Part shown: positions 20,916-61,542 of the stretch, in pieces
Layout: each line of letters begins with the position of its first letter
Numbering within the stretch: the first letter of the stretch is position 1
Assembly: GCF_000003815.2 (NCBI RefSeq)
Contig: NC_049983.1
Coordinates: 5,701,042 to 5,765,041, forward strand
DNA from: Branchiostoma floridae
Taxonomy: Eukaryota; Chordata; Leptocardii; Amphioxiformes; Branchiostomatidae
Direction of reading: 5' to 3'
DNA: 64,000 bases
Notes under the pieces: generated by a model
Seen by the model: the letters and a program-made list of their open reading frames with translations, nothing else
Database searches by the model: none
Told to the model about the DNA's origin: nothing
Translations under genes and position numbers: made by a program

Positions 20916-21127
20916 ATGAGTTCCAGAAAAGGTGAGCGAAATTAGACCATTTTCTCGTCTTCTTACACCCGTGTCGTCTACAGTCTCGCTCAGGTTTGTT
21001 CTTATGTATCCTTCTGCTTCTCAGTGTTAGCGATCCAGGCCCGGAAAAAGCGGACAAAAGCGCCAAAGGGCCGACTGAAAAATGCGGCGTACCGGGACCG
21101 CAATCGTCAAGCTGGCAAGGGACAGGG
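20916..21127 (+). CDS. SRPK: SRPK-family SR-protein kinase, coding exons 1-2 (N-terminus only)
   Basis: Exon 1 is 20916-20931 (donor GTGAGC) and exon 2 is 21025-21127 (acceptor TTCTCAG, donor GTAAGT). Joined, they give 39 codons plus two bases, starting MSSRKVLAIQARKKRTK and continuing with a very basic stretch. Vertebrate SRPK2 has an isoform beginning MSSRKVLAIQARK, and SRPK1 begins with a similar MERKVLALQARKKRTK, so the match is specific. SRPKs are Ser/Thr kinases that phosphorylate RS domains of splicing factors. The kinase domain is not in the window, so the next exon must lie beyond 64,000 or was missed. It is head-to-head with PUS7. Confidence 0.85.
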
Positions 21128-21639
21128 GTAAGTGGAGATTTTGACATGTTGTGTTCGGTGGACGTTATACTTGTCAACATCACCGAATGATCGATTCTAC
21201 TAAATAAACACCACCCTGTTTGCTCTACTTATTGTTGTCATCTTGTCCTGAGCGTAAAAATCGCCAGCTCGTACGGTTTCTCGTTTCATCGTGAAAGACT
21301 TGCGCCCATGCTCACGCCCGCTATCCGATACATGTATTAGTACCACACGAATCCATCATGTTCTAAACTAGCCGGCCATTTCCTACAATATTTCCCCCCT
21401 CCCCCTTTTATATATTCGTGATGGCATCTAGACTACGTTCGTGTGCCATATATTGGCTGCTTGCTAGGAGTTAGTATAACCTTGCCAAACGACCCAAGTG
21501 TGTTGAAGATTATGTCATAGCTGAGAAAAGCGCAGTGGTGTTTTATTTGCGCGGGAGGGACAAGGTTGTGTGAGGTCAGGGCATCTGTCTGAGTCTCTGA
21601 CCCGCACATGGGGTGGGGAGGGATCTTCCTTGTCAGTCC

Positions 21640-23240
21640 TGAGTATCGTGTGCCTTAGCTGCATGCTTCCTCTTATTTGTTCTAAGTATGTAGTGGATCA
21701 GTGTCCCTTCTTCAAGTTCTTGAACTCAGTATATTTGACAGTGGTAGCCTTGAAGGGTGGGAGGGTGTGTTTTACTTTGCACAACGTCAGATAGATAGAG
21801 TATTGTGTACCTTAGCTGCATGCTTCCTCTTTTTTGTTCTAAGTATGTAGTGGATCAGTGTCCCTTCTTCAAGTTCATGAACACAGTATATTTGACAGTG
21901 TTAGCCTTGAAGGTGGGAGGGTGCGTTTTACTTTTGCACCAATGTCTCAGGTAGAATATTGTATCCTAACTGAATGCTTTCTTGTATTTGTTCCAAGTAG
22001 GTAGTGGATTTATGTCCCTTCTTGAACACATTTGACAGTGGTAGCCTTGAAGGATTGAGAGTGGGAGGGTGTGTTTTACTTTGCACAATGTCAGTCAGAG
22101 TATTGTGTATCCTAACTGAATGCTTCCTCTTATTTGTTCTGAGTGTGTAGTGGAGCTATGTCAATTCTTAAGGTCTCATTGATGCATTACTCCGCGAGTG
22201 GGTACCCTAAAAGAGATCTGAGCCAAAAATGAACGGCTGCACGGACGCATGTTTTTAGCAGTGAGAAATTCCCTTTTAGCCAGCGGAACTGATCTCAAAA
22301 GTTAGATTGGTGAAAGCTTATTTGTAACTGAAGAAATTAGCAGGTAAAGTTTTGCAGCCGCGCGCTAGGTCGGAGGTACACAGTCGTGGGTTCTGAGTGG
22401 TGCGGTTGTACACTAGCAGCGAAAAAGTGCCTTTTGTGGGGATTGACTAATCGTAGTTTGTAATTGCTATAAAAAAGTTCCTACGTATAGTTTACGTTGG
22501 CAATTTTTTCCCACGATATAGGGTAAATGTGCTCGACATAGAATGAAAAATCTGCTGAAATTTCACGTAGCTTCATTATAAACGCGCCCATTTAAACCAT
22601 GAATTATAACATAGAAGTCTATGGGAAGAAGAAACTCATCAATGAGACCTTAAACACAGTACAGTTGATAGTAGTAGCCTTGAAGGTAGCATTGATGGCT
22701 TGAGGATGGGAGTGTGTATTTAAGTTTTACTTTGCACAATGTCAGATATTGTGTATCCTAACTGAATGCTTCCTCATATTTGTTGTATGAAGCGGATTTA
22801 TGTTCCTTCTTAGACACAGCACATTGCATGTAGTAGTAGCCTTGAAGGCTTGAGGATGGGTGTGTGTGTTTTACTTTGCATAATGTCAGATAGAGTATTG
22901 TGTATCCTAACTGAATGCCTCCTCTTATTTGTGTGTAGTGAACCGATGTTCCTTCTGTTACTACTTAAAGGCCTGTTTGTATATTTTTGTCGGTACATTT
23001 GACAGTAGCCTTGAAGGACTTGTACAATGATAATGAGGGTGTGTTTTACCTTTACACCAATGTAAGTCATATACTTATAGTATTAGTATCCTTATTGAAT
23101 GTTTTCTCTAATATTAAGTGGATATATGTCCCCTCCTACAGCCTTTTTTATTGGTACTTTTGACAGTAGCCTTGAAGGCTCGACTTGAAGAGGGTCTTTA
23201 CCTTGCACCAATGTCAGAGTATTAGATACCCACAACTGAC
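21640..23240. repeat. Diverged satellite, ~150-160-bp unit, in the SRPK intron
   Basis: Recurring order: GTATCCTAACTGAATGCTTCC, TTATTTGTTCTAAGTATG, GACAGTGGTAGCCTTGAAG, GTGTGTTTTACTTTGCACAA. The first landmark recurs at about 21658, 21815, 21968, 22115, 22760 and 22909. The gap between 22115 and 22760 is explained by the inserted MITE. Confidence 0.85.
22172..22649. mobile_element. TTAA-flanked MITE, 478 bp (piggyBac-like target)
   Basis: Perfect inverted termini GGTCTCATTGATG / CATCAATGAGACC are flanked by TTAA at 22168-22171 and 22650-22653. It sits inside the ~155-bp satellite. The TTAA duplication fits piggyBac-type integration, but the terminus is not the usual CCC, so the family is uncertain. 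Confidence 0.85.
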
Positions 23241-25364
23241 TTAGTTAGAGACCCTGTTTCTATTTGATTAGTACCTTTTACAGCTGTAATCTTGAAGGCT
23301 GTGCTTTACCTTGTTCCAAAATACACACAATAACCCTCATAAACATTACAGCATGCTTAATATAATAGAAAAACATTGGTAGAGTGTGACATAAGGTAAT
23401 GCTGATTGGCATGTTGTTGTATGTTGATGCCTACAATTCCTTGGCACAGATGACTTTGCCTGAAAAAAAAAACTATAGTGATAGCCAGAATATGGGGTGC
23501 AGACTGTGTATATAAGTATCCTAGACTTGGTAGGGCAAGTACTAGTAATAGTAGTATGTAAACATTTAGTAAAGGATACCGTCCTCAAGGCGCCACGACC
23601 AACTTGATAGCGGTCTCAAAGTGTTTGCTCAACGGAACTGCCAAGAAAAAAAATCCCTGTTCTATGCGGCCATTGACAATGACATTGTGCAATTCTATCT
23701 TAAAATGCTTTACCTTTTTAAAAGGGTGTAGATGGAGAAAGCTGCCGTTGACTGTTAGAAAATACCCTTGTTGGCTGTTCTGTTTGCACATGTCTTTTGG
23801 AACAGACTTTATATGTCCATTTGAGACTCTTTACAAGTGAGTGTTGGTAGTGTGTACATTTAGTGTATAGACTTTCTGTGCATGGAAGCAGTTTTCAACA
23901 ATTTGTAGTTATTCTGCAGCTGGTATTTTAGATGTTCCGCTCGTATTTAATACCGGTGGTACTAGGTTGGATTTTCCTCCATCGATATGCTTACCTTAAA
24001 TCTTATGTCATCTCACAACTTTGTTGCATATGTCGACATGTTTTCCTCCATACATTCCATAGATTACAGTCTTTGCTTTAAATTTCCAGCATTTTGTAGT
24101 TAATTTGTAGTAGGTATTATTATATTATGCTTCCCTTATGTACATTTGTTATTATTAGTGTTATCCTACTTTACTTCATTACATACTACTAGCATTGATT
24201 TTAGATCTATTTCTGTTACAAGTATAGCAATTGCTTAAATCAGTTTAAGTCAAACATCATAACAGAGTACTGTACAGCAGAACCATAATATACAACACCA
24301 GTGCTAAGCTTAGTGTTGTATTTCTTCTTCTTAGCATGTCCACACTGCTTTACCCCAAGTCTGAGCAAACAAGACCCAACTTGTTTATAGAAATAAACAC
24401 TGATAAACTCCATGTGTGCATAGCCTACTATCTGTCCCCAATGGGGAAAAGACATGACATGCTATAGGTCAACCATGGGTCAGGGTATGACTATGACTAT
24501 GAGACTAACATTCCCATTACATTAGGTGTCCTTGATTGTATGTGTGCTGTAGTTTACTACATAGGGGGCACTAGCTAGGATTTTATCTTAGCGTAATGGT
24601 AATGCAAGGGTAGCAAAGCAACCAATCAGATGATGGGGAAGGGTGGGGGGGTGGCCCTTTCACAGTGACGGAGTGAGGGGACTTTGAAATTATAAAATAA
24701 AAAGTTGACAAATCTTAGGGCACCCATGTTGGGACTTTATCTTACCACAGTCACTTGTATTTAGATTAGAAGCCGATTTAAAAGGATTTTTTGGTCAGTT
24801 TGGAAGGTCATATCAACATTTTTCATATTTGATCAACAAGACATTGTTCCACAAGTAAATACTAGCAAGGTCCCATTATGCTAGTTGCGTAGAAAAGTAG
24901 TGTAATGGTACTCATTTAGCATGGTGGTCGCAAATTACAGCGTGGTTTCCCGTTATGCTCAAATGTACTAGCTACAACCAACCCCCATAGGGTCAAGGAT
25001 TTTTTTCTTATTTCTACATCGCATTTGTGGTAGAAATTGTCTGGGACATAACCTTTCACTTGCTGTTGTGACCTTTTTGCTAAGCTGTAGCACACAGTGG
25101 AGACCTGTGTAGTAGTAGGACTGTTTCAAGTGCTACAAAGGAAATGAGGCACCCACTTTGAAGACACATGATACCAGTACGTTTGATGTGGCAAGTAATG
25201 TAGAGTCTACGTCAGTCTATATGATACTGCCTGCTTTATCATAATAATACCAGTGTTTTGCCCAAGGCCAAACAATTTATTTCCTTGGATCTGTGAAGCA
25301 AGCAAGAGAGATATGACAAAATCAAAGCACAAGGCTCAGGGGAAACTTTACTATGTACGTAGGG
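23241..25364. other. Intronic sequence, no gene seen
   Basis: AT-rich with small open frames that have no splice or family support. Nothing recognised. Confidence 0.4.
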
Positions 25365-25660
25365 ATGTCCCTGTAGCTCAACTGGTAGCAGCCTCACAGT
25401 TGAGCTCCTGATTAGTAGTTGGTAACTGGGAGATAACGTTCAAAACTTGGGAAAGGACATCATTTGTCTTTTGGAAGGGATGTAAAATGGAGGTCCCGTG
25501 TTCAAGGAGGTGCCTCGACCATATTAAAGGGAATGACTAGCAACCCCTCCCTGAAAAAAAAGCGTACTCCGTTGCAAAAACGGCAAGGAAACCTGTTGGC
25601 CTATATGCCACTAAGATAAGAACTACAACAGTACAAGGCGAACAACAACAGTCATTTTTA
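25365..25660 (+). mobile_element. tRNA-derived SINE, degenerate
   Basis: The head GTCCCTGTAGCTCAACTGGT matches a Pol III A box (TAGCTCAACTGG). A poor B box (GTTCAAAACTTGG) follows at about 25439-25451. The body ends with GAACTACAACAGTACAAGG and AACAACAAC, a simple-repeat tail. It is not a functional tRNA, since the arms do not pair. Confidence 0.6.
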
Positions 25661-26239
25661 AAAGTCCATGAACCTACAAATAGAATTGGCATGGCCTAAC
25701 ACTTAACAGAGTGATTATTGTATGTGCAGCAAGAGAAACCAAACACCATAAAAGCGTATATGTACCTTCCCCACGTCTCATACTACTATGAAATGACCCA
25801 GAAAATGTGGCGGTCGGTGCAAGTTTTTTTTTTATCGCAGTTCCGACCAAATTTGATGAATCGTGCAGAATGATAGTCTCTGTCCTGTTGCTTGCGCTGC
25901 GTCAGATCATTGATTTTATGTGACATTGCACAGTCTGACCATTTTTCTAATAACGCGTCTCTCATATATATTGGCACAGTGACTTCCTAACATGTTTAAT
26001 TTATGGGCGTCACGAGTATTGCATTTAGCATAGGGCTTATACAAGGCCTTATATAATAATGCTGACCACCTGATCTTGTTGCCAGATATATATATCCTTT
26101 CTTGTTACGTAGCGATATTCGACAGTAAATTCAGTCATACTCTGAAATTTCTATGCTAGCTAGCATCTTGTTTACATTTTAGTGGTACAAAGTTCAAACT
26201 TCATTGTGTACAAGTATATACAGTATGCAGTGTTTACCC

Positions 26240-27777
26240 AGGGCTTTTTTTAAACCGGGGAACGGGGGCGCCGCGCCCCGATACTATCTACGTGCGCCCG
26301 CTTACTCAAATTACCGATTGTACTTCCTCTTTCAATGTAGCATTACTTTACCATATTCACAACATGCAGTCTGTTTCAAACTGATCCTTTTTCCTGTGAA
26401 CATGTAACAAAAACAACATACAATAATGTATCTTATTATTACAAGCTTCATTACTCTCAAAATATCCCAAAACATATTAATAAAACCACAAAAATAACAA
26501 TTTCTGGCTTTGAGTAAAGCACACAGCAGCATGCCCACGTTCTCATTGATAAGTTCATGGGAGGTTGGAAGAGTTCATTTTAAGTAGTAACAGGGAAAAC
26601 ATCTTTTTCATGGACTGTAAATTAAACACCCTTTCTTGGAAATATTTGAATCCATATTGCACATTAAATTCAGATGGGTAAATCACTACACAAAAGTAGT
26701 TAAAAACATAGTAATCTATACTAATTATCACATCAAAATGTTGTAAATAAAATCTTTCCCCCAATAGATTTCTAAGAACTGCAACATCCTTCTGTTGTTA
26801 GCTCCTCCCCTTTCTGTCTGGCCCCACCTACCTGACTCCACACACTGGCTACAAGTACAACTCTTTTGATGTGAAACATGATATCCCTGTGACACACTGA
26901 TACAGCAGAGATTGTAGCAAACTTGAAAAAGTGTGAATATAACAGATCAAGTCTGCAGTTTCTCACAACATTGTAACAAAACATTTGTTGACGATTTAGC
27001 TGTACAAAATGAATATTTTATCTGCATATAAAATATAAGGCTCAACATAGTGGTACAGAATGTAGTGTGACTGTTGCCTTGGGAGAAAAAGCAAATAGTA
27101 TGCAAAAATAAAATAAATGGTTGCTTATGATAGCCATGCATAAGAATGGTGTAAGCTTATTGTGGCTAGCTATATCACATTAACAAACCAAACTATTTCT
27201 TCTCATAACACAGGGTTTAGATTTATCATTAATTCTTAAAACATGTGCACATATAAAGGGTGATTTGTGGATAGTTTGCAAAGTTAAATTCAGTTTATAT
27301 AGATTATAAAGAAAAGTTGGTTTATATAAAAAACTTGACTTGACTTGTATATAAATCTTTTGACTATTTAAGTATTTTAAAATTTGTATACAAATGTTTA
27401 TATTGAGAAACATTCTTATTAAGTGCTAAATGTTGATATTGAGAAAGAAAAATAGCCTTTGAAGGTGTTGCACAATCCAAAAGAACTACAAAAATGTAAC
27501 AAGTTTAGCCAGTTTTTTTCATTGTGTTAATTGTATCTTACAGGCTACAAAATATGCCTTCTTGTAGTTTTACATGGTAAGGACAAACACACATTCAAGC
27601 TATGATTTTCCCCTTGAAGTAGCCTCAAAATGTCCCATTTTTACCTCATATTTTCAAAGGCTTCGCACAGAGGAAGGGGGGAAACCCCCCTTCCGCACCA
27701 ACCCCCCGCTTGGTCGCTCCGCTCCCTCGCCACACTGACCAAGCTCCCTCATACTAATTTTTTCTAGAAAAACCCCT
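26240..27777. mobile_element. hAT-like non-autonomous element, 1538 bp, 8-bp duplication GTTTACCC
   Basis: GTTTACCC flanks both sides (26232-26239 and 27778-27785). The termini AGGGCTTTTT and AAAAACCCCT are inverted with one mismatch. Both ends carry G/C-rich subterminal blocks (CGGGGGCGCCGCGCCCC; GGGGGGAAACCCCCC) unlike the AT-rich core. No transposase frame was found. Confidence 0.75.
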
Positions 27778-27785
27778 GTTTACCC

Positions 27786-29924
27786 ATATCATCTGAATGA
27801 AAAAGTAATTTGTGATATTTTCTTTGTTATTACAAATTTACTGCCCAATACATTTGTCATGAGTAGCTTTTTTTATGAAAAGCTATGTTGGAGGAAAATA
27901 GAAAAAAATGAGGTCACTTTGATTTACAAAAAATTATTTATTATCAAGGTTTAAAAAAACATGAGTTCAAACTACATATGTAAGTCTTTGAGAATCATAA
28001 GTGTATCATGATATGACTATTATAAGTATGAAAGTCTAAATCTATGATTATGAATATGAAAGTCTAACTCTTAGTGAAACAATGAACTGAATTCAGCATG
28101 CCCAGATATTTAATTATGGGGAATGGGGATTGAAGTTGGGCAGGTCAGAAAGGGCAAACAATTGACAGCAAATCTTTGCTATATCATAACTGGAATTCAA
28201 ATTTGGTAATAATGCCTTTTCTATATTAGGCAAGATATTCTACATTGTCCATGAATACATGATGTAGCTACTGGTCTGGGTACTGTTAATGCATCTACAT
28301 TTTTGTAAATTCAAAGGGATTTATTTTTGTGGTAAGAAGAAATTTAAGTATTTACGGTGGTTGAAGTTTGGGGTAGCACTATAGTATAGTCACAACCGAA
28401 AGTGCCTTTACTGACTGTCAGTTGTAACAACCACCTACTACTGATGACTTGGCAAGGGTGCTACAGACTAACAGAACAGTCGCTTTTGGTAGTGCTGACA
28501 TGATCAACTGGCACTGAATGATCCTAGCATACCAACCATCTGGATATTTGTAATCTGTACTTTTCTACCAGTGTTGGCAATCAAGTCGTTTCAATTCAAG
28601 CATTAATATGTTCTGTTATGCCTTGTTTGTATTCCTTCGTATTCACCTTAACTAAAATTGGTGCCGACGACTAATATCATTACACTGTACAATGTACAAC
28701 AGTACATACATGTAGAACTTGTGTGTAGGTAGACAGACAGAAGATTGCACAAAACATTGAAGATGTCACGGCAAAAATTGCATGAACATAAAACCACTGC
28801 AAACCTAAATGCATGTACACTATGATCTGGCAGCTTGGCATTAATCTAAAAGGTCATGTCATATTCTGCATGCATGAGTGCCTCTCTGCTGCCCAATAAA
28901 GTAGCAAAACTTGTACCAGAGTCCAGATCAATGGACAGAGATCAGCAAAAATGGCAAGGTCCAAGGCCATAGAGCTATATAGTGATATGAATTTTGTCAA
29001 ATTGTATAATTAGACTCAGTATGTATGATTGTGATGTGTTTGTTTGGCTTTAGATAGCAGTAAATGATTTTTAAGTTTTTTTTCATTAATATTTATTACC
29101 CGTATCATTTCACATTTTGCACATTTGTATCATAGTAAAAATACATAAATTACCATCGCCAAGAAGGTTAATATGTTTTTTGGAGTTTTTGTCAATTTGT
29201 GTGTACATGATAACTAAAACTGTAAAAGAAATGCCTGGATACAAAAATGTATGTTTTGGGTTGTCTCGATAATTATTATGCGGATAGGTCTTGGTGAGAC
29301 CTTGAAATGGTTAGTTTTGGGCCCCCAAGAAGCTGTCTATGGTACTGCAGTGGAAATTCTGGTTTGTCATCTTGCTGGGTTCTTGGTTCATATTCTGTAC
29401 CATTATGAATATTGAAATCAGAAATAATGATATTCCATTGCTTTTTCCTTCTCCTATATAGAAGATACTAGTAGGAGGGTGCATTCTCTCCTGTCAATTA
29501 GAGTATTCCCTGGACAGTGTACATGCAGTAATGTTAGATCAGTACCATATGTTATCTGTTTTGCTTGTCAATACCATGGAGTGCTTGTCTATCTGTTCCA
29601 GAAATGCACACCACAAGTGTCTTATGTCAACACCTTGTGAGTCCTGGACAGTCTTTAACCTGAAAATTCCAGTTTGACAAATTATTTACAGTTTGAGATA
29701 GTTCAGAACCTAGCCTGGGTACCATCTTGGTTTAAAAAAACAACATAGGGATTTCCTGTGAGTGTAATAGCAGTTGACAGGGAATGTACATGTTCTATGT
29801 AATGTAGTTGACAGTATCTAAATAAGATGGTTCACAGAGGGTATTCATGAACCAGTTCTTAGAAATAGATGGTCTTGTTTCAGGACACAAGTGCTGTCAA
29901 ATTATGTCAAGAATCTAGTTACCT
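27786..29924. other. Intronic sequence with small repeat fragments
   Basis: Fragments of the TACTGTAAATGCA MITE are visible near 28290-28365 and 28770-28825 (AACATAAAACCACTGCAAAC). No gene was recognised. Confidence 0.4.
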
Positions 29925-30130
29925 CCATAAAAAAAGGAGGTAAAACTTCAAGTGTCTGTCTGAGTGTGTGGGTCTGTGTGTGTGTGTCTTTGTTTTCGGA
30001 TATTTGCGGGCATAACTTAAGAACCTTTGAATGGATTGTGATGATGTTTATATTATAGGTATCAAAAGGTCAAGGTCAATTGTGTGCCCCCTGGTGTGTG
30101 ACCTTAATACTGAAGCAGAACATCTATATA
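29925..30130. repeat. Dispersed repeat R1, copy 1
   Basis: Landmarks: hairpin CCTCC...GGAGG, GTGATGATGTTTATAT, then AAGGTCAAGGTCAA, TGTGCCCCCTGGTGTGTGAC and GAAGCAGAAC. The same order occurs at 31390-31510 and 60420-60590. Confidence 0.65.
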
Positions 30131-30946
30131 TTTGTATCATTCATAAAGAAATGTAAACATGGTGTCCTGTCAAAGGAAAAGTCTTCCTTCCACACAAATT
30201 GGGACACATAAAAAAAGACACTCTAATAGTAATACATGTAATTTTGGTAGAGAATACCATAATTCAAAATAGATTATGGTAAGTACAGCCTTATTTGTAT
30301 CATCTATGATACAAGATTGAAGAATAAAAAGGCTGTATGAGGCATCTAAATTCTATCTGCTTGATGTGGTAAAAAGTCGTGTAAATTAATCTTGTTCTCA
30401 CTGTTGTTAATGTTATAGACAAGATTATCTGTATCCTAGCTATGTGCTTTATCAGTATAACTGGTTCCTATTATCAGTCCCGACATTTGGCTGATCTATT
30501 ATTTAGTGAACAAACTCCTTTGAGTTTGTTTAGGCAGCGCCGTAAGTGGTTGGATTGGTGCTGGCTTTTTGTCCACATACATGCCTAAAGAGCAAACTAT
30601 CAACACAGATTACTGGAAGGCTTTCATAATACTACATGTGTGTGAGTGAAACCAGAAATGCTTGGATGATGCATTTGTGTGCATTTATCATATAGTCAAA
30701 TTCATGTAGAATGTAGATCATACATTGTTAAGGTTTATTATTTCATAAAAAGATATATAAAGTGTATGTCAACTTTGGAGTACCTTTCAGTTTTCCTTAA
30801 TCTATAGTCTATTAAGTATTATTACAAGGATTATGTTCCTGGATTGTCATTATGATACAAAGAGAAAATTATGATAATCTTATTAATACTCAATAATATG
30901 CGTAATGGTACAATGTGCAGTTTTGGGGAGGAGGAATGCAGACCAA

Positions 30947-31145
30947 TACCGTAAATGCATTTAAGTTTGCAGGGATTTAATTTCTCGGTAGCGTTTAAAT
31001 TATCTGTTTGCAGTGGTATTGTCTTATACTGTAGTCACATACTGTAGATGAAAAGCGTTTCTGCAGCTGGTGGTTTTGAGCTCGTGATAAAGTTAACATG
31101 CAAACATAAATTTTAAAACCACTGCAAACATTTCAACATTTACCT
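30947..31145. mobile_element. TACTGTAAATGCA MITE (copy 4)
   Basis: Left end TACCGTAAATGCATTTAAG, right end AACATTTACCTTA. The interior contains GCAGTGGTATTG and AAACCACTGCAAAC. Confidence 0.6.
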
Positions 31146-31389
31146 TACCAACAAGGGTCATTGATTTGTCTGGCTGTTTTTATAAATATAAATCATAACT
31201 GATGACATATTTAGCTCAGTCTGGATCTTCAAGTTCAAGTGTTTGTTTTTTGACAGCCTTTGCATCTAGATTAAGATCAAAGTTTAAACATAGGCTGTAA
31301 CAAAATTTGCGTTTTTCATGTTACAAATGATAGTTGTAAAGCTATATTTATCTCTAAGTCTAAGTATAGCATTTTCCTTTTTGTTTGTC

Positions 31390-32025: not shown

Positions 32026-32181
32026 TAAAATAAACATCAATCATTATAACCTGATGCTTAGATCTAGAAATATTTCATTCCAATATTATTCAGTGATCTT
32101 TCTTTTACTGTTGTTGAATATTTCTCTTTATTTTTTTTCTATGTAGATTGTTTTCATCTATTTTTTTTTATCATCCCATAT

Positions 32182-51070: not shown

Positions 51071-51369
51071 GAAAGCTTAATATCTGATCCAGTTATTAAG
51101 CTGGGTTAATTATCCAAGACCAGCAAACAATAATGACCTGCTGTGAGGGAAATGATGGCCCAGGATGGGACGGTCAGTTTAATTTAGATAAAGGGAGCTT
51201 CTGAGTAAGGAGAAGGAAGAATGACTCAGTGGTCATCTCAAGAGACAGGCCCCCCAGGAGGGGAAGAGTATTTAAAGAGGAAAGCAGGAGGAGTTGTCAC
51301 CATTCCTGCCAGTACAACATGGTACATAGTTCAGAGAAAGTCTACCATGCTGCAGGGTTCAGAAAATTC
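51071..51369. repeat. Split direct repeat A2 (299 bp)
   Basis: Second copy of A1, starting at the base after B1. The sequence diverges from the A1 context immediately after AGAAAATTC. Confidence 0.9.
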
Positions 51370-52312
51370 CCCCATCCCACCCACCCTTAAAATGAATGTT
51401 TGGATGAATATGTAATTAGGCATTAGTTGATATATATGTATATATTAAGATATGGATTTGGTGATATAGATTATCTAGATCAGTTACAAGTCAGGATGCG
51501 TTAAACATCCGCTGGACAGAGCATTGGTTTAACCGACCAGCCCGATCTTGGCTATAACAATTGGCAACCAGGGTAAAACGGTCGCCCGCTCGCAGCATGA
51601 CTTGTCTAGTAGAGAGGCGGGACCTTGTATTAGACTGATGTATAAGATTGTGTAAAGAAACCAAGATGAGAATGACATCGTGTACTTTGGTAACAGAGAT
51701 TTCGGCATGCTCTACCAACGTAAGTGAATTCGGCACATTTGGACAATCGTTTGTTACGTCGACCTACTGTATTGGATTTGTACTGTTATGGTCTGTTTTC
51801 TGAAGTAGAAGCAAGGTCCCCAAAGGAAGTGTCTGAAACTAATAAACTGGGAATGGGTACTTTGGTCATTCAGTGCTACCAGGTGTTGTGAAGAAACAAA
51901 CTTGAATTGAAAGTGGGAGACAGAGTGCTCCAGAGATGAGGGAGACAGAGTGCTCCATGAGGGAGACAGTACTCCAGAAAAGAAGTAGTTGTGGGAGACA
52001 GAGTGAAACTGTGCTCCAGTAAAAAAGATGAAGGAGACTGTGCTCCAGAAAAAAAGAACCTGTGAGAAAGCGAGAGTGCTACACAGATGAGTCCCAGGAT
52101 AGGGGCCGCATACCTAATATCGGGATGTTCTCTTGAATGAGAAGGGACTTCCCACGGTGCCATCTTAGCATGCTAAGAGGTTGCCCGCGGAGAGATTCTG
52201 GGACTGGGTTGAACCGTAGCCCTGTGTGATGGGAGGTTGACCCAAAAGCAGTGTGTAAGGACCTACGAGGAGGGTAGGTCAGAGAAGATTGGTTTGGAGT
52301 GTGATGAGGTGG

Positions 52313-52516
52313 GGCGAAATTTGTGCTAGGAGTGAGCACAAACCCCCCATCTCACAAGATGAGCAGGTCAAAGAGAGATGAAAATTGGTAGCATTGAAGA
52401 CCTTGTACCTTGCCCCCATACTTCTGCCACAAAGGACAGTGTGTTGTGTGTCTTTCTTGTGTCTCAATGATACTTAATAATTAGGGGTAAGTGAAGCTGG
52501 ACAAGCGATAATTAAT
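52313..52516. repeat. Split direct repeat B2 (204 bp)
   Basis: Second copy of B1 and the right end of the element. The host tandem repeat resumes right after it. Confidence 0.9.
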
Positions 52517-52884
52517 AACATGTAAAACTTCGTCTGAGACCAAGAAGTTTTTTAAGTTCTTAAGAAGTGTGGGAACACAAAGGACCTCCAGAAATAGCCA
52601 CTCGGCATGCGGAGTCCCATGTCTTGGCACCAAACAGTCAATCTTGCGTGATCCCAGCCCTGGCCGTCCTAATGACAGGTCCTGGGCCAGCCTTCCCTTC
52701 ATTTGTGTTTGATAAGGGGCAGTCTCGGGGCACTCTTCTTGTGGACGGAGCCATAAATTACGTGGAAATCACACCGCAGTTCAAAGGGAACCACCCAGGA
52801 TCAAATTCATGGTCTGAGATAAGGAAGCCCCTTGTTGGAATGTTGCTGCATCACGTGTAATGATACTCCTTACTTAGTGGTGGA

Positions 52885-53590
52885 CCTTCAAAGTCGTGGG
52901 AGTTATTGTAGGAGTGAAAAGGGGACCTGGAAGTTATTGCAGACATAAGAAAGAGGCCCTCAAGTCTGAAATTATTTCTGAGGCAAGGAGATAACCTTCA
53001 AGTCGCGAGATTTCTTGCAGTCGTAAGAAAGAGTTCCTACAGCTGATTCTGAAGTAATAAGAAAGGGATCTTCAAGTCGTGGGAGTTATTGCAGGAGTGA
53101 AAAAGGGACCTGGAAGTTATTGCAGACATAAGAAAGAGGCCCTCAAGTCAGGAATTATTTCTGGAGTAAGGAGGTAACCTTCAAGTTGCAAGATTTCTTG
53201 CAGTCGTAAGAATGAGTTCCTGCAGCTGATTCTGAAGTAATAAGAAAGGGATCTTCAAGTCGTGGGAGTTATTGCAGGAGTGAAAAAGGGACCTGGAAGT
53301 TATTGCAGACGTAAGAAAAGGGCCCTCAAGTCTGGAATTATTTCTGGAGTAAGGAGGTAACCTTCAAGTCGCGAGATTTCTTGCAGGCGTAAGAAAGAGA
53401 TTCATTGCTGATTCTGGGGTCTTCAAGTCTTGGGAGTTATTGCAAAAGTAAAAAAGGGATCTTCAAGTTGCGAGAGTTCTTGCAGACGTAAGAAAGAGAT
53501 CTTTAGGTCTGGAGAGTTATTGCTGATTCTGTTCAAGTACGAAAGAGATCTTCAAGTCGTGGGAGTTATTGCAGAAGGAAGAAAGATACC
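52885..53590. repeat. Satellite, ~183-bp unit with ~60-bp internal periodicity
   Basis: CGTGGGAGTTATTG recurs at 52895, 53079 and 53261 (184 and 182 bp). Inside each unit GTTATTGCAGACATAAGAAA and TTTCTTGCAGTCGTAAGAAA are sub-repeats. The last ~200 bp are more degenerate. Confidence 0.9.
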
Positions 53591-55183
53591 TCGGCTACAC
53601 CATGGACATTAGAATCCTGTGGCTTGCAGGCATCGAGCCGTCGTCTGCATACATCACAATGTAGGTACCAAATAACGACTAACATACAAGCATGCTTTCG
53701 TGCTAGGACTATAGACTAAATTGGTTGATATTGTTGTCACAGATGTTTATGTTCAAGCACAAACTTCTGAAACCAATGTCTTTACATGTAGATAAAGGGA
53801 CAAGTACATGTAGGTTATTTTACTACATATGTGTGTATGGTAATATTGATGTTAGTGTCAATGTACTGTACATACGTGTACATGTACAATCTACACTGCC
53901 TAAGAAGACACCTCAAGTGACCAATAACATTTGGTTTATGTGGATATGTGGTCACTTCAGACAGTGTCATAATGCTTGTGTCAATGGGGAAATTGTCTGA
54001 GGAGGTCACATTGGCCAGGTAGTCCCTGTTTAGAGTTGGTCATTTGTACTGCATTTGCCTTACACTACACAGTTCAGAATATATTTTCCCTAGGCTATAG
54101 CCTTACCCCAAGCATGTTAATGTATTGGTGAGTTGATTGATGTTGACATCAGATGATCCAGGTGGTGCCCTTAAGAAAAGAGCAGCCTTGTGGACAGCTA
54201 AGGTGTTGTAAATAATTCAAAGAAGAGCATGCATAAGACAAGTGTCTGTGCCACCAGTCCTTTTCAACATGTTGTTTTTATGTCTATGGCAACAGTATTA
54301 CCATCCAAAATGCTGTCCATTGGAGTATATCGTGATATAGTGCATATTCTCACATAAATATTACAACACACATGCGGGATTCAAAATGGTGGGTTTGTCT
54401 AGAGACTGCAGATAACAAAACCTTGCCCAGTGAAGTCTAGAATTGTTGCCATACTGCATGTACCTGACAAAGTGTTCTACATTTCTTGGATTGCTGGTTA
54501 GGGCTACAGAATGGATATATAATTTATGTAGCCCTGTCAGTGAACTGACCTCTGATGTACAAATGCTCCATGTGCAAATTTGCAAATGTGGTAATCGTGT
54601 TTAACTTGGGTCTATTCTGTAATGTTTGGTTATGATTGGTGATATGCTGCATTAAATTATACACTGTAGTACTAGTGGTAGCTGCCAACAAGTTTTTATG
54701 TAGACATTTCGTAAACAGAAGTAGATTTCACCAACTTCAAAACAAGAGGAAGCAACCTGAAGTTGTATCTATTTCTCCCTTCATCTCTCCCTCAAAGGAC
54801 TCGATAGCCAATCTTTCAGGTCATAAAGATTGTTTCTTATCTTTATTGACTGTCTTCCAACATGAGCAGACTACAAACTGGTAACTTCAAAGATATCCAG
54901 GTGGTTTGTGTCTTCCATAGGCAGGACCTGTCACTCATGTAGGTTTCACCCTGGGAAAGGTCAACTGAACATAATTGGATTTCCGCCTGTCAAAAAGAGA
55001 ATTTACTTTGTAGTTCAGCAAGTATTTTGGCAGATATGTCATACTGGGTAGAATGCGAAAGGTTGCATAGTTAGAATACATAGCTATTGCTCATTTTTCA
55101 CGTGAACTATGTACTTTCAAAGGAGCTTTAGTTTGGGTCATACAGACTTTTAGATATGCCACTGTTATTATAATAGCAATATA
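53591..55183. other. Intronic sequence, nothing recognised
   Basis: No supported exon, RNA gene or defined repeat. Confidence 0.35.
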
Positions 55184-55600
55184 CGTGGGACCGCGTAGCG
55201 CAGTGGGACCGTGTTCGCCCCGTGACCGAGAGGTTGCGGGTTCGAATCCGCCTGCCGTGTTACCGATCTTGTGCCCTTGGGAAAGGCACTTTACACGGCT
55301 TTCCTCACTATACTCAGGTGAAAATGAGCGGTACCTAGCTTCGGCTCACGGTGATTTACATCATTCACCCGGACGGGAGACCTGGTGCATATGAAAGGGT
55401 ATGTCACCCCGTAAGGGGCGGTATAACCCCGTCGTGTGTAAACATGTGCGAACATGTGCGATCACGTCGACCGATGATGTATGTTCGTCTGTATCTCTGT
55501 GGATCTGCCGCTACCAGCCCAAAGCTGCCTAGGCAGATCCGTGTAATGAGTTGTATCATTGGCAAATAAATAAAAAATAAATAAATGAAATAAAATCATG
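55184..55600 (+). mobile_element. tRNA-derived SINE with conserved central domain
   Basis: The head GGACCGCGTAGCGCAGTGGG carries an A box (TAGCGCAGTGG) and a perfect B box GGTTCGAATCC at about 55239-55249. It is followed by CTTGGGAAAGGCACTTTACA and TTTCCTCACTATACTCAGG, which resembles the conserved central domain described for Nin-DC-type metazoan SINEs (recalled, not checked). The tail is a run of AATAAAT-type repeats. It is better preserved than the SINE at 25365. Confidence 0.75.
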
Positions 55601-55639
55601 TCAACCAGGTTCAAATTCTAGTGTAAACAGACACAGTGA

Positions 55640-55830
55640 TTGTAAATGGATTTTAGTTTACTGGGTTTTAGTTTTGTGGCAAGAAAAGTGTTTGGGTGAT
55701 TTTAAGTTGGAAACTAGTGGTATAGTTTGGTAGAACAGGTATTTTCGCAGTGGTTTTAAGTCTGCATCGAAATGGTCTCAATAAAAACAATGAATATAAA
55801 ACCACTGCAAAAATTTCAAGAAGTACAGTA
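55640..55830. mobile_element. TACTGTAAATGCA MITE (copy 5), diverged
   Basis: Left ATTGTAAATGGATTTTAG, right AGAAGTACAGTA. The interior has GTGGTTTTAAGT and AAACCACTGCAAAA. Confidence 0.5.
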
Positions 55831-55994
55831 ACTTATCCTCAATATGCAATATCATCATTGTGCAACATACACTGCATAAATATACTTTACAAAGGTGGAT
55901 GAACTACGTAATCAATTTATGAAATAATCATTGTTGGTGTTAGTAAAGAAGTTTTGCGTTTTGTCTACATCAAAATTATCGTTTTACTGTAAAG

Positions 55995-56311
55995 CAGGGC
56001 TCGAAATTCATTTCTGGGATTAGGTGCACTGGTGCACCCAGGTTAAAAAATTGGGTGCACCAAAAAAATTTTGGGTGCACCACTTAAATTTAAGTTTTAA
56101 CCTAATAATAAAACTTAGTTACAAGCCATCAAAGTACCATAACTGACATTTTTATTATCTTTCTAACAGATGTCAAGAATATGATGTATACTAGTATACT
56201 TTGATACTTTTACATACATAAACATATGAAAATATTTGGGTGCACCCTGTGCACCCACAGAAAATAATTGGGTGCACCTGGGTGCACATGCACCCAGTAT
56301 TTCGAGCCCTG
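55995..56311. mobile_element. CAGGGCTCGAAAT MITE, target GTAAA(G), 317 bp
   Basis: Starts CAGGGCTCGAAAT, ends ATTTCGAGCCCTG. GTAAAG lies on both sides, so the duplication is 5 or 6 bp depending on where the end is set. It is the near-inverse of 32182-32543: the same GGTGCACC clusters and core words (AGTTACAAGC, ATACTAGTATACTTTGATA). Confidence 0.88.
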
Positions 56312-57779
56312 GTAAAGTGTACTACCAGTAAAGAAGTTTTGTGTTTAATGTTGCTAGATGCAACCTGACAGAAAATGTATGTAACTTATGTATGATTGCT
56401 GACTTCATCCAGTTATAACTGGTACCTGGCATGCCCACCGCATGGATCAAAAGTAATTTCCGTCAGGCAAAGCTTTTTTCATGCCCCATCCTTCATGCAT
56501 ACATGTAGTATATGGCCTGTATTTTTCATGGACCGAGCCGCATTACCGCAGAGCTTTTTGAGCCTACCGCACGTTGCCTATGTAGGGAGCATTTATCATC
56601 TCAATGTGGTACCAAAGACCCTTCAATCAAAGTGAACTCAAGTATCACATGCTGTCCTCCAAGCTTTGATGGATAGGACCTTGGCGCATGCATGAAAGAA
56701 AAAAGGCACCGTGACAAAATGAGAAGGAGACTTCTAAACTGCAGTCCAATATCAAGAAGGCCAAGAGGTCTTCCTTGAGCGTAGAAAGGTCATTTAAGTA
56801 TCTCCATGGAAAATGTTTTATCCAGGTGACTAGACTGTCAGTCTAGGATATGGTGTGATATGGGCCCTGTCGACAGATAATTCATCATTTGTAGAATTCA
56901 CCAAGCTGCCAGACTTTGGGGGATTTATTTCTTCATAGTTTGTCTATTAAATGCATAAAATACTTTTTTCAGCCAAGTTGCCCAGGCCGCAACAAATGAC
57001 TTAATACTCTGAGTATGATATATCAAACAATAGATTCTTCATTTTTGTCCTTTTACATCTTCTTCTTTGACTTTGGAATTGAATTTGGCTGTGGCCAGTA
57101 AGTACATGTAATTAAGCCAGCCAATGGGCTATGGAAAACAAAAATAAACAAAAAAAATTGCATTACAATGTCAACGTACTTCTGTGTTTCAAGTGATTTT
57201 TACCTTTTCATATGATGTATCATAAATAAATGTTTTTCATTGACAATGTGAATAATATGAAACTTGATCCTAATTTTCCCGTCTGCCAACCAAATAGCAC
57301 ATCGGATTAACGCACACTTCTGTTAATTGCACGGAATCCCAGAATCCCAAACTGGTGCGGTCCAGCTAGAAAACTTCGCATATTTGCACCAGCCGGATAA
57401 TTGCACCAAATTCACTGGCAAATAGGCCGTGCAATTAAGCGGCTTCTACTGTATCATATTCAGTCCACAGCTTCTCAAGTTACAAAATGTATGTTTTTGA
57501 CCAAAAGTATAACTTAAAACCTTTTAAGCAAAGGTTGTTAAAAATGTGTACTATGCCTAAAATGTCCCTCTCTTGTCAGATATGTAGAACTACTAGAAGA
57601 CTAATTGTACCACTGGGTCATTGAACTTGCAATTGGAAAAACACAGTGTATCATTGTACTTGCAATGAATTATACATCAGCTATCTTTCATCAAAAAATG
57701 GATCCAGCCAATTAAAGATTCATACATCTAGACAAACGTTCAACATGGTATTAATCAGGAAATCATAAATTCATATCTT
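56312..57779. other. Intronic sequence, nothing recognised
   Basis: 57300-57450 has GTGCAATTAAGCGG-type words (TTGCACCAGCCGGATAATTG) that look like a degenerate inverted-repeat transposon. The ends are not clear. Confidence 0.3.
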
Positions 57780-58118
57780 GTTCATCACAGCTTCACGGCG
57801 AACGTTATGATAATTTATCCCGCGCTCCCCGATTTGATAAGGACGATAATTGACTTAATCCTCCGTAGAATACTGTAGGGCGGAAGTAAGAGCCATTGAC
57901 ACTGCGTGGTACAGCTCCCCTGTGTGAGTGTGAGTGAGTTCGCTCGCACCACTCAGTCTAGCCCGGTCGTTAACCATGCTGGGTGAGTGGTGCCAGGAGA
58001 AGGCCGACGCGCGAGCGTATTGATCGGACGGAGGCTGGGACCGCTCGGTGCTGCTACCGTGCCATTGTGTATACGGACAATCATACGGTCGGCTTTCCAT
58101 GGCGCTAGTACGAGCGAC
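57780..58118 (+). promoter_or_regulatory. CpG-rich block, candidate internal promoter
   Basis: CpG-containing words (CCCGCGCTCCCCG, GACGCGCGAGCG, TAGCCCGGTCG) are dense here against an AT-rich background, directly before a candidate first exon. ATG-CTG-G/GTGAGT at 57976 is another possible mini-exon. Confidence 0.4.
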
Positions 58119-58168
58119 ATGTCACTGGCTCTACAGCTACAGCTACAACTCACCCAACTATCCCTCAG
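58119..58168 (+). CDS. Candidate short alternative first exon (16 codons + 2)
   Basis: The ATG opens MSLALQLQLQLTQLSL and reaches a donor CTCAG-GTATTA at 58168/58169, leaving phase 2. It is too short to recognise. Support comes from the CpG-rich setting and from phase agreement with SRPK exon 2 and the exons at 37581 and 61403. The ATG at 58099 in another frame would leave phase 1 and is less consistent. Confidence 0.35.
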
Positions 58169-60419
58169 GTATTATGTCTTAGACTCAACTTCTTGGCACC
58201 GATTTCTCCTTAGATTGGCTGTATCTTTACATGTTTCCCACTGCCATAACATTGAAGTATAGGTGTTTTCCTGATATGGCAACTTTCCAACTAATTTTTG
58301 TCAGGGTGTGGTATGCCCTGAAGTGTTTTTCACAAGTCGTATTTTACAATTCTGCGTCCGTTTTCAGTTATATTTCATTGCTGGTGTAAATAGAGGGAGT
58401 TTTGGGAGTCTGTTGTAGCTGACAAGCCCCCATGGGGCAATTTGGCCCCTGTTCAGAAAGCACGCTCCATTGGCAGCGTAATCAGGAGTTATTTCTATTA
58501 CAGATGAGATTTTATGATAAACAGATGGTGTGGAATATTAGTCTTTCCTGTCGCTACTGTGGCTTGATCTTTCACATGTGTCACAGTAATCTAATATACC
58601 TTCGACCTGTTCAATGTTGCTTAAGTAATCCAGGGGGACTAAAAATTGAATTCCTAGTTTCTGATGTCACCTTTTGTGTAATTGATAGAGAAGACAGTTT
58701 CATGGCTGATTTAGCTTTACGATTATGGCTGTTTTAAAGCTGTTTATGCTGTATTTTTAATTTATAATCTATCTTAGAGTCTATACATGAATTATATCCA
58801 TATACAAACAGATGCATCAATATATACAACGTCATGTACAAAACCTGTAACGTTAGTTCACCTTTAATTTCATCTGTGGGGTAACCTATGTCTGTAAGTT
58901 GTTTTCAGAGCTGTGGTTTCAAATTGCAATATATTAACAATTTATATACATTTTCAAAATAATTGTTTGAAACCACCGCCTGTCAAGTTGACATCTCTAA
59001 ATTAGTAAATACCGTGTTTTTAAAACAACAGATATAGGTATAGGTAAACTAATGATTCTACTTTAAACTTCACACCCTTGGCAAATACATTTACATTATT
59101 GTTTTGTAGAGAGTAGAGTTATATTTTGGTTCAATATACAAATTACACATGTACTCCATTTGTTTATAAAAGCTGTGTGGCATGCTTGTATTACCAGGTG
59201 AAAGTTTGTGACCTACATTTGCCTAAGTGTTCATTAGTTAATGGAGCTACCCATGATATATGTTGTACATGTACAGTGGGTACATGTACATGTATATATC
59301 ACACCATACCGTAAAATTTGTTTTCTTTTGCTAAGTTTTCAAACTTTTAAAACAACTTCAATGCTGCTGAAGTCTCGTGTCCAAGTATGATAAAGGATTC
59401 ACAATGTGCTAGTATTTATTCTCAAAAATGATCTTATAAAATGTCTACATCGTCACAATTTTCAGTATACAATATAGTCTTTCATTTTCATTTATATGTA
59501 GTACACTTGGTTCTAAGAGTCAAAGAAATACATGTATCTACTCTCCAATCTGAGAGGTTAGGCTCTGGCTGTTTTTTTTTTTACCTAAATTCTGGCAAAA
59601 CAGAAAGTCAAATAAAAACACCTGAAATAATGTAAAAGAAAAATAAGCCGGAAAGTCTTCTTGGAGAGTAACATGTATCAAGGTTATAATATTTTTGAAG
59701 AAAAAAAACAAAAAAACATTCACCATGTTGAAATGTTAGTCAATGCCCAAACCCTTGTGTAATGTTGCGTCACCTTTTTTTGTCAGGCCACAGTGAGGAC
59801 AGACTGATTAATGACATACAGGATACATGCTTACATGGATGATTTGTAGCCCTCTATTACTGTTGAGCCACCAGGACTCTAGTTGTTGTGTGATTTACGA
59901 GGAAATATTATTGTCTGGCTTTACCCAGGTTGATGAAATGCTGACAGACTTAGATAGAAAACATATTTATGTATTGATACAACTTATGAACGTAACTTAG
60001 TGTCTGCTGACAGACAAAATAGAGACCATATTTATTGATACAGTACTCCATAACTTATGGCGTCAATTAAGTACGAACAGTTGATCACTCCCAAGTTGCT
60101 TCATTATTTTGTAAGTTGGATTATAGGTGAGAAGATTTTGATAATTGTACTAGTAGTGATTTATTATAATGAACTTTTTGATTATGCCAGTCTGGTATAA
60201 GTCAGTGTAAATCATAAACACGTTGAAATAAATAGATATGGTTTCTTTGAACTTTAAGGTTCTAATTTCAACCTATTCCAGTGGGTTATACCATTCTTGT
60301 CCAGAGGGGAAAGTTTTGCATGTAATTTTAGCTGTACAGTATTATTACTCATTACTACACACATGTACAAATGTATATCACTATATGTCATGCATGTACA
60401 TTCATGTAATTGTTTAACT
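58169..60419. other. Intronic sequence, nothing recognised
   Basis: No supported exon or repeat. Confidence 0.35.
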
Positions 60420-60600
60420 GTCTGTGTGTCTTTCTGTGTTTCCAGATACTTATGATCGGTATAACTTTAAAGCCTCTGGAATGACTGTGATGATATTTGG
60501 TTTGTGGGTAGGTGTTGGGAAGACAAAGGTCAAGGCCAATTTTGGGCCCCTTGGTGTGTGACCTTGGTACTGCAGCAGAACGTTTTTTGTATCTTTCGTC
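60420..60600. repeat. Dispersed repeat R1, copy 3
   Basis: GTGATGATATTTGGTTTGTG, AAGGTCAAGGCCAATTTTG, CCCCTTGGTGTGTGACCTT and CTGCAGCAGAACG run in the same order as at 29925 and 31390. Confidence 0.65.
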
Positions 60601-61274
60601 TTGGACATGCTATGCCATTGATTTTTTGGTTACAGATAGCTTGTGATCTAAGGAAAAGGTAGTGTACGTTCGGGCCTTGCTCTATTTATAGCTGTATAAA
60701 ATATTTGATTTTGTCTTTTTAGATAAAAAGAATAATTATTCCACTACGATTTTACTGCCCAAAAGCTTAACCTCTGATGGTTTTTCAATTTTAGAATATT
60801 GACAAACCATTGTTACATATTGTGAGACGGATTATGCAAAGGCTTCCCCCTCTCGTAACTGGCTATTTCTGTCAGGTATTCTAAGTCTGACATTCCTCCC
60901 ACCAAAGTCAACTAATTCACAGCTAAGCCCCACATTACCCAACCTGTACGTGATACACATACAATAAGTGCAGCTAGCTTGACATGGCATACATTTTTTC
61001 AGTCCATATATGCTTTAAAACCTTGTAAGGCACCACGATCAATCATACCAAATATGTTAGAATAACGCAATTATGTACACACTAAAAAAAGTCGGGTGAA
61101 GAGATATGTAGCGGCTGGCTACTCGAAACTTGTCGCCAAATTTTTCATGTTGAGGTTAAGTGCCTCTGCAATGGAGTGTGCTCAGCTGAGTGGGTGCCTG
61201 GAAGCCATTGGCCGATAGGTGTAGGCAATTGTTTGCTAGGGTAAATATTGTTGTTTGCACTGGTCTCCGCCACC
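60601..61274. other. Sequence upstream of the 61.3-kb candidate promoter
   Basis: No gene seen. The last ~200 bp are G/C-richer and probably belong to the promoter/5' UTR of the next exon. Confidence 0.3.
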
Positions 61275-61340
61275 ATGCCACGTAAACTTGGGCCGTTACA
61301 GCGCCTCAGCGGAATGGAACGTGGCGGCGGTGGGAGTTAG
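61275..61340 (+). CDS. Upstream ORF, 21 codons, optimal Kozak
   Basis: GCCACCATG is a textbook start context. The frame reads MPRKLGPLQRLSGMERGGGG and ends in TAG at 61340, 62 bp before the ATG of the candidate exon at 61403. It is either a uORF that would damp translation of the main frame or a chance match. Confidence 0.35.
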   Translation: MPRKLGPLQRLSGMERGGGGS

Positions 61341-61402
61341 TTGACAGTGTCGGGTGGAGGTTTCCGCTACCCTCGTGCGTTTCTATCGCCCTCGTGCGTG
61401 AA

Positions 61403-61542
61403 ATGGTCGTGCAATGCGTCCCTTCGTCCTCGGGTAAAACAATGACCAACCCTACTACTGTAACAACAACAACAACAGGTACTTCAACGGAGCCCCCGAA
61501 CAACCTACTAGACAGCTGTACTCAAGAACTCTGCAATGTGTG
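61403..61542 (+). CDS. Candidate alternative first exon (46 codons + 2), possibly SRPK
   Basis: The frame reads MVVQCVPSSSGKTMTNPTTV, then a short Thr run, then EPPNNLLDSCTQELCNV, and enters a donor TGTG-GTACGT at 61542/61543 with phase 2, the same as SRPK exon 2. The setting is G/C-rich and promoter-like (61260-61440). The sequence is not recognised. It could be the most proximal alternative start of SRPK or the first exon of another gene. Confidence 0.45.

What the first reader, a model, noticed from the sequence alone, without database searches (positions are those of the whole stretch)
20916..61542. Four candidate first exons with one common splice phase in front of an SRPK kinase
SRPK exon 2 (ending 21127) and three isolated start exons at 37581-37777, 58119-58168 and 61403-61542 all lie on the + strand, all end at a good GT donor, and all leave phase 2. 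The chance of three independent exons matching the phase of the first is about 1 in 27. Two sit in CpG-richer islands. Vertebrate SRPK2 uses alternative first exons spliced to a common kinase exon, so a 40-kb multi-promoter 5' region would be ancestral or parallel. The peptides themselves look new to me.
Basis: partly seen in the sequence, partly recalled or inferred. Interest (0 to 1): 0.75.

Follow-up and report, generated by a model that had tools for sequence, protein, structure and literature searches.

The report
Alternative start exons of lancelet SRPK
A splicing-factor kinase gene in a probable lancelet has a 44-kb intron that holds one coding-like extra start exon and two promoter-like islands, so it probably makes proteins with different front ends, as its fly relative does.

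Summary
The layout and splice phases are confirmed, but the three proposed start exons are unequal. I read 119 kb past the window. The shared SRPK exon lies at extended coordinate 65141-65271, 1.1 kb beyond the edge; it takes phase 2, and kinase exons follow on the same strand to 86510. All three candidates lie inside SRPK intron 2 and each reads in frame into the kinase.

37581-37777 has a strong frame-specific codon signal and one match in the genome. 61403-61542 is plausible: a CpG island with one match in the genome, a medium donor, doubtful codon signal. 58119-58168 also sits in a one-match CpG island, but its donor is weak and an earlier ATG gives the wrong phase; as a coding start it is no better than chance.

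The "1 in 27" figure fails, because many ATG-donor pairs in 44 kb are phase 2. CpG depletion and strand skew fit one + strand gene body, though the depletion runs past the gene's end. SRPK is single copy here. Drosophila Srpk79D has alternative SRPK starts, and vertebrate SRPK2 too (recalled), so this is a new member of a known kind. No transcript data were available.

The parts
12841..19931 (-). PUS7 (pseudouridine synthase 7), N-terminal half, head-to-head with SRPK
   Evidence: tblastn with recalled human PUS7: eight pieces between 12841 and 19022, E from 9e-14 to 0.11; one exon peptide hits PDB 5kkp Pseudouridylate synthase 7 at 1.2e-11. The first exon near 19740-19931 is inferred from an ORF only.
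20601..21500 (.). CpG-rich stretch shared by PUS7 and SRPK, presumed bidirectional promoter
   Evidence: CpG o/e 1.12 against 0.40 for the whole window
20916..20931 (+). SRPK coding exon 1 (MSSRK), leaves phase 1
   Evidence: sequence; donor score 6.62; matches by eye the recalled start of a human SRPK2 isoform
21025..21127 (+). SRPK exon 2 (VLAIQARKKRTKAPKGRLKNAAYRDRNRQAGKGQG), leaves phase 2
   Evidence: 11 of 15 residues identical to the recalled SRPK2 isoform, but E 1.3 by itself; reads in frame into exon 3 at 65141
21128..64000 (+). SRPK intron 2, which continues to 65140 (44 kb)
   Evidence: exon 3 at 65141-65271 = G000:C5:5766182-5766312; CpG o/e 0.33-0.43 in most of it and mostly + type strand skew
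37581..37777 (+). Candidate alternative start exon A, 65 codons plus 2 nt
   Evidence: codon log-odds +31.8 bits, 0 of 28 null stretches as high, signal only in this frame; donor 4.85; one match in the genome; strongest + strand peak of the intron in the 45-codon scan, third in the 28-codon scan
57701..58300 (.). CpG island, candidate internal promoter B
   Evidence: o/e 0.95-1.15 in 300-nt windows; one match in the genome; second peak of the intron by CpG count, the first being a high-copy element
58119..58168 (+).
   Evidence: donor 0.48; 96 of 579 null stretches have as high a codon score; earlier ATG 58099 in phase 1
61201..61600 (.). CpG island, candidate internal promoter C
   Evidence: o/e 0.88 overall, 0.94-1.02 in 300-nt windows; one match in the genome; fourth peak by CpG count, seventh by o/e
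61275..61337 (+). Short upstream ORF (21 codons) with GCCACCATG context in island C
61403..61542 (+). Candidate alternative start exon C, 46 codons plus 2 nt
   Evidence: donor 2.68; reads into SRPK in frame; codon score -4.1, 4 of 101 null stretches as high, but 36 of 127 under an earlier, poorer model

Best explanation
This is the 5' half of a single-copy SRPK gene (SR-protein kinase) of about 66 kb in what is most likely a lancelet. The main transcript starts in a promoter shared head-to-head with PUS7 and uses exons 1 and 2 (MSSRK-VLAIQARKKR...). Further transcripts start inside the 44-kb intron 2, at about 37.5 kb and at one or both CpG islands near 58.0 and 61.3 kb. Each uses its own start codon and then splices to the common phase-2 exon 3 at 65141. 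The kinase is unchanged and only the N-terminus is swapped, which would alter tissue expression or cell location. Shown: gene order, strand, the common exon, phase compatibility, the CpG islands, and a coding-like signal in the 37.5-kb exon. Inferred: transcription start at these places, splicing of these exons (exon 2 included) to exon 3, and any effect of the N-termini.
For: Shared exon 3 in phase 2 and kinase exons to 86510 on the same strand; the exon 3-6 peptide hits SRPK2 2x7g at 1.9e-62. All four N-termini read in frame. CpG o/e is 0.31 in the PUS7 body, 0.33-0.43 in most of intron 2 and 0.31-0.50 from 64 to 88 kb, against 0.65-0.87 in the nine 4-kb bins from 104 to 140 kb; skew changes sign between the 16-20 and 20-24 kb bins. 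Of the four CpG-rich islands of intron 2 by the 300-nt criterion (not counting the tail of the promoter island), one is a high-copy element and one lies between terminal inverted repeats; the other two have one match each and are the candidate promoters. The 37.5-kb exon has frame-specific coding signal and is the strongest + strand peak of the intron in the 45-codon scan. With donor 37777 it cannot be a cassette after exon 2 that includes its ATG region: the only 3 AGs that keep frame lie inside it, before 37697, 37709 and 37730. Exons 3 and 4 contain no in-frame ATG, so an internal promoter needs a start exon of its own. Precedent: Drosophila Srpk79D has two transcription and translation starts (PMC2759580, section 6 read).
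Against: No transcript data. Two short upstream ORFs (from 61171 and 61275) precede the 61403 start. 61403 has doubtful codon signal. 58119 fails as a coding exon. The 37.5-kb exon lies in only a mild CpG rise (o/e 0.75) and has no similarity to any Pfam family or PDB chain, so only position and phase tie it to SRPK. In the 28-codon scan, CpG-rich stretches at 55.2 and 58.0 kb score above it, and 53.6 kb (+) and 27.7 kb (-) score about the same. By CpG o/e alone, stretches at 22.2, 26.0 and 51.4 kb rank above island C. The CpG depletion continues past the last SRPK exon to about 104 kb and returns at 148-156 kb (0.43-0.48), so it does not delimit this gene. For islands B and C, 4 and 3 AGs would allow an in-frame cassette after exon 2, so frame does not make those exons starts.
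Confidence: 0.62

Rival explanations
1. Only the exon 1-2 start makes SRPK protein. The two CpG islands are intronic enhancers or promoters of non-coding RNA, and the start exons in them are chance ORFs.
For: 58119 is indistinguishable from chance; 61403 has doubtful codon signal and a medium donor; phase-2 start exons of about that size and donor strength arise about once per intron by chance. The paper on B. lanceolatum functional genomics (PMC6292497, passages seen) reports regulatory elements that lose methylation within hypermethylated gene bodies.
Against: Does not explain the coding signal at 37581-37777, nor why the first long ORF after the upstream ORFs in island C enters exon 3 in frame.
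Confidence: 0.2
2. The 37.5-kb exon belongs to a separate small gene nested in SRPK intron 2.
For: No similarity links its peptide to SRPK; a few other stretches of the intron score about as high in the 28-codon scan.
Against: Those other stretches are CpG-rich, lie in or beside a tandem repeat, or are on the minus strand; no Pfam domain at E <= 0.1 in six frames of 20-64 kb (18 chunks; the same method does show LRR and TruD matches elsewhere in the window). Short exons could have been missed.
Confidence: 0.12
3. The exons are SRPK exons but islands B and C act as one 5' unit, with island B giving only an untranslated exon spliced towards the 61403 start.
For: The better donor of island B (57982) gives no open SRPK frame from its own ATG.
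Against: Island C looks like a promoter by itself (CpG o/e 0.88).
Confidence: 0.06

Closest known systems
Drosophila Srpk79D (CG11489)
   Same: An SRPK gene with two transcription and translation starts giving different N-termini on one kinase; overexpressed tagged PC/PF isoforms co-localise with Bruchpilot at active zones and PB does not (PMC2759580, abstract passage, section 6 and other passages seen).
   Different: Two starts, not three or four; the paper reports no clear functional difference between the isoforms, and all three constructs tried rescued the Bruchpilot accumulation; no sequence relation between the N-termini was tested here.
Vertebrate SRPK2 alternative N-termini (recalled: MSSRKVLAIQARKRRPKREKHPKK- and MSVNSEKSSSSER- joined to PEPQQ...)
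   Same: Exons 1-2 here resemble the first form, and the common exon begins PE... right after the join; the K/R alternation at the human join suits a phase-2 split (inference from recall).
   Different: None of the three candidate peptides resembles MSVNSEKSSSSER by eye; the human gene structure was not available to test.
Head-to-head bidirectional gene pairs of amphioxus
   Same: PUS7 and SRPK are arranged 5' to 5' across one CpG-rich stretch; [quoted passage not shown] lanceolatum (PMC6292497, passage seen).
   Different: Whether this pair is in that paper's list was not checked.

Membership tests
SRPK kinase gene | SRPK-type split kinase encoded downstream on the same strand | tested here: met
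   kinase exons 65211-86510; exon 3-6 peptide best hits SRPK2 2x7g 1.9e-62 and SRPK1
SRPK kinase gene | Single locus in this genome | tested here: met
   of 20 matches, the 10 with 50-82% identity to the recalled SRPK2 query all lie here on C5, one of them the partial last-exon copy at 180 kb; the other 10 have 26-47%
Alternative first exons of one gene | Each start exon lies upstream of the common exon on the same strand | tested here: met
Alternative first exons of one gene | Start codon in frame with the common exon through a usable donor | tested here: inconclusive
   met for 37581 and 61403; for 58168 the donor is weak and an earlier ATG is out of frame
Alternative first exons of one gene | A promoter at each start | tested here: inconclusive
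   CpG islands at 58 and 61 kb only; 37.2-37.8 kb has o/e 0.75
Alternative first exons of one gene | Spliced transcripts joining each start exon to the common exon | not testable with these tools
   no RNA data held
Ancestral chordate SRPK multi-promoter region | Homologous start exons in other lancelets or vertebrates | not testable with these tools
   states that this genome has no relatives here; no other animal genome was reachable

The most novel reading that the evidence does not exclude
The single pre-duplication chordate SRPK gene already carried four N-terminal start exons driven by four promoters over 44 kb, and vertebrate SRPK1, SRPK2 and SRPK3 inherited different subsets of them after genome duplication.
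Probability: 0.08. Interest if true: 0.55.

Novelty: new member of a known kind. Interest (0 to 1): 0.36.

Why it matters
SRPKs phosphorylate SR splicing factors, and in flies overexpressed isoforms with different N-termini sit in different parts of the neuron. A single-copy lancelet gene with several N-termini would give a baseline for asking how the three vertebrate SRPK genes divided an ancestral set of forms. The exact splice positions given here make that testable with one set of RNA reads.

Tried and rejected
Codon model trained on the window's own PUS7, SRPK and LRR exons: set aside as insensitive, since the SRPK control scored -0.9 and the LRR control -38.1. Under it 37581 scored 20.9 (0 of 40 null stretches as high; synonymous part 1 of 40), 61403 -2.0 (36 of 127) and 58119 1.6 (75 of 697). 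It was replaced by a model from amphioxus kinase ORFs. In one search I took the longest closed ORF of 8 loci; 3 of those 8 picks were under 75 codons and may be wrong frames; one search used the other 5. The scans also ring at CpG-rich sequence on both strands, so they cannot judge islands B and C.

Pfam six-frame scan of 20-64 kb: 0 families at E <= 0.1 in 18 of 18 chunks; the positive control gave LRR and TruD matches. PDB searches with the open frame around the 37.5-kb exon (80 aa) and with exon 2 plus read-through: nothing; with the open frame around the 61.4-kb exon: two matches at E about 0.2, both outside the exon, taken as chance. Rfam at gathering scores and tRNA scan: nothing. Two kinase loci (C1, C2) fetched as possible SRPK retrocopies: the C1 one matches SRPK2 only at 22% (it looks like CDC7, recalled), the C2 one not at all. 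No SRPK retrocopy that might preserve a spliced 5' end was seen. Paper searches: the listings for amphioxus or Branchiostoma with SRPK (7 and 5 papers) and PUS7/SRPK2 synteny (1) showed no paper on this gene by title or start of abstract; a search for the letters MSSRKVLAIQ found none. No structure was predicted.

Against my reading: 48084-48277 and 23664-23836 are also phase-2 ATG-donor pairs, with better donors (5.73, 4.98). I set them aside for negative codon scores (-8.6 and -29.2; yet 0 of 31 null stretches reach the first) and because the first lies beside a duplicated stretch (47852 and 51205). 61403 itself falls just under the 2.68 cut and is not among the 7 pairs listed there.

Full report
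WHAT WAS CLAIMED. Four + strand start exons, ending at 21127, 37777, 58168 and 61542, all phase 2, in front of one SRPK kinase whose shared exon lies beyond the window.

WHAT IS THERE. SRPK exons 1 and 2 are at 20916-20931 and 21025-21127 and encode MSSRK-VLAIQARKKRTKAPKGRLKNAAYRDRNRQAGKGQG. The likeness to a human SRPK2 isoform rests on a sequence recalled from memory and on 15 residues with E 1.3; position and frame make the case. PUS7 lies head-to-head on the minus strand. The genome holding the window (513.4 Mb; the window is G000:C5:5701042-5765041) let me read on. Exon 3 is at extended coordinate 65141-65271 (G000:C5:5766182-5766312), after ...TTGTTGTTTCAG; its first base completes a codon begun by two bases upstream, so it takes phase 2. 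Exon 4 begins at 70898 and the kinase ends at 86510. The encoded peptide hits SRPK2 2x7g at 1.9e-62 and SRPK1. The gene is single copy: of 20 matches, the 10 at 50-82% identity all lie at this locus, one of them a partial last-exon copy at 180 kb, and the other 10 are at 26-47%.

PHASE. All four exons join exon 3 in frame. For 58168, the earlier ATG 58099 in TCCATGG context is in phase 1 and would stop after 51 aa; the better donor of that island (57982) also leaves phase 1 with ATG 57976. Between 21128 and 64000, 33 of 83 ATG-reachable donors scoring at least 0.48 can be called phase 2. In 60 dinucleotide resamples of the intron, phase-2 start exons of >=140 nt with donor >=2.68 averaged 1.13; those of >=190 nt with donor >=4.8 averaged 0.07, and 4 of 60 resamples had at least one. 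The real intron has two of the latter class, 37581-37777 and 48084-48277. The donor matrix is approximate and recalled.

CODING SIGNAL. With a codon model from amphioxus kinase ORFs, six SRPK control exons or pairs score 0.26-0.87 bits per codon and four PUS7 pieces -0.02 to 0.26. 37581-37777 scores 0.49 in its frame and about 0 in the other two; 0 of 28 ATG-initiated open background stretches of that length reach it, by full or by synonymous score. 61403-61542 scores -0.09 (4 of 101 as high) and 58119-58168 scores -0.18 (96 of 579). Under the earlier, poorer model 61403 was not distinguished (36 of 127). A 45-codon scan of the first 90 kb has peaks on 6 of the 13 SRPK exons I located (86349, 75946, 65136, 20967, 85010, 85700); within intron 2 the 37.5-kb exon is its strongest + strand peak (25.6), with minus-strand peaks over islands B (27.5) and C (25.4). 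In the 28-codon scan it comes third on the + strand of the intron, after CpG-rich stretches at 55.2 and 58.0 kb, and a stretch at 53.6 kb beside a tandem repeat and one at 27.7 kb on the minus strand score about the same. Its peptide has one match in the genome and matches no Pfam family or PDB chain.

PROMOTERS. CpG o/e is 0.40 over the window. It is 0.31 in the PUS7 body, 0.33-0.43 in intron 2 outside the islands (0.70 at 61.6-62.1 kb) and 0.31-0.50 from 64 to 88 kb, but 0.65-0.87 from 104 to 140 kb. Between 88 and 104 kb, past the last SRPK exon, it is 0.40-0.61, and at 148-156 kb again 0.43-0.48, so the profile fits but does not delimit one gene body. B. lanceolatum methylates almost only gene bodies (PMC6292497, passage seen). 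T-A and G-C skews are negative over PUS7 and mostly positive over intron 2 and the SRPK exons, changing sign between the 16-20 and 20-24 kb bins; exceptions are 47.7-55 kb (T-A), 63-65.1 kb (G-C), 71-86.5 kb (G-C -0.02) and some single bins such as 24-28 kb. Intron 2 holds four CpG-rich islands by the 300-nt criterion, apart from the tail of the promoter island. 55.0-55.6 kb is a high-copy element (42 matches listed, 3419 first-look candidates of which 40 were scored; 39 long matches at 94-98%). 62.6-63.0 kb overlaps a stretch bounded by 20-nt inverted repeats. 57.7-58.3 and 61.2-61.6 kb have one match each. These two are the likely internal promoters or regulatory elements. By o/e alone island C is only the seventh peak of the intron. 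The 37.5-kb exon sits in a mild rise (o/e 0.75; eighth peak by CpG count).

MECHANISM. Exons 3 and 4 have no in-frame start codon, so a transcript begun inside intron 2 needs a start exon of its own in phase 2 to make the kinase. The 37.5-kb exon, with donor 37777, cannot be a cassette after exon 2 that includes its ATG region: only three AGs keep frame, all inside the exon. It is therefore best read as a start exon of SRPK; a nested gene is possible. In island C the first long ORF after two short upstream ORFs (from 61171 and 61275) is 61403, and it enters exon 3 in frame; in islands B and C in-frame cassettes are not excluded (4 and 3 AGs).

WHAT IS KNOWN. Drosophila Srpk79D has two alternative transcription and translation starts (PMC2759580, section 6 read). 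Overexpressed PC/PF but not PB isoforms co-localise with Bruchpilot at active zones, yet the three constructs tried all rescue the Bruchpilot accumulation (passages seen). Vertebrate SRPK2 alternative N-termini are recalled, not looked up.

VERDICT. Ordinary in kind, well located, and now precisely testable. One candidate start exon is strong as coding sequence, one plausible, one poor.

Noticed in passing
L020 4606-6808 (extended coordinate 177606-179808, G000:C5:5878647-5880849) and the copy that follows: About 23 tandem copies of a 97-bp unit, each holding an intron end, an acceptor and the start of the SRPK last exon, followed by a copy of the last exon and 3' region (610 nt aligned, 97% identical to the gene). 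It lies 91 kb downstream of SRPK; one run of N falls inside. It may be a partial duplication whose exon start was amplified.
   Followed up: partly
window 1-12840 and 30 kb upstream (L021, L022, L026): The C-terminal half of PUS7 (beyond human residue about 395) was not found in the 42.8 kb that follow its last detected exon (210 N in the fetched part), so PUS7 here has a very long intron, is truncated, or is broken in the assembly.
   Followed up: partly
6793-7983 (+): Intronless leucine-rich-repeat protein ORF of 396 aa with a hydrophobic stretch near its C-terminus, on the strand opposite to PUS7 and beyond its last detected exon.
   Followed up: no
13322-14355: 42-bp minisatellite with an 86-bp higher-order unit, open in several frames.
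   Followed up: no
about 55180-55600: High-copy interspersed element of about 400 bp, CpG-rich, 39 long matches at 94-98% identity across the genome.
   Followed up: yes
62122-62953: 832-bp CpG-rich stretch with 20-nt terminal inverted repeats (95% complementary) and internal repeats, probably a DNA transposon remnant or MITE.
   Followed up: partly
47852 and 51205 (+); 50719 and 52279 (-): Duplicated open frames inside intron 2, probably transposon-derived.
   Followed up: no
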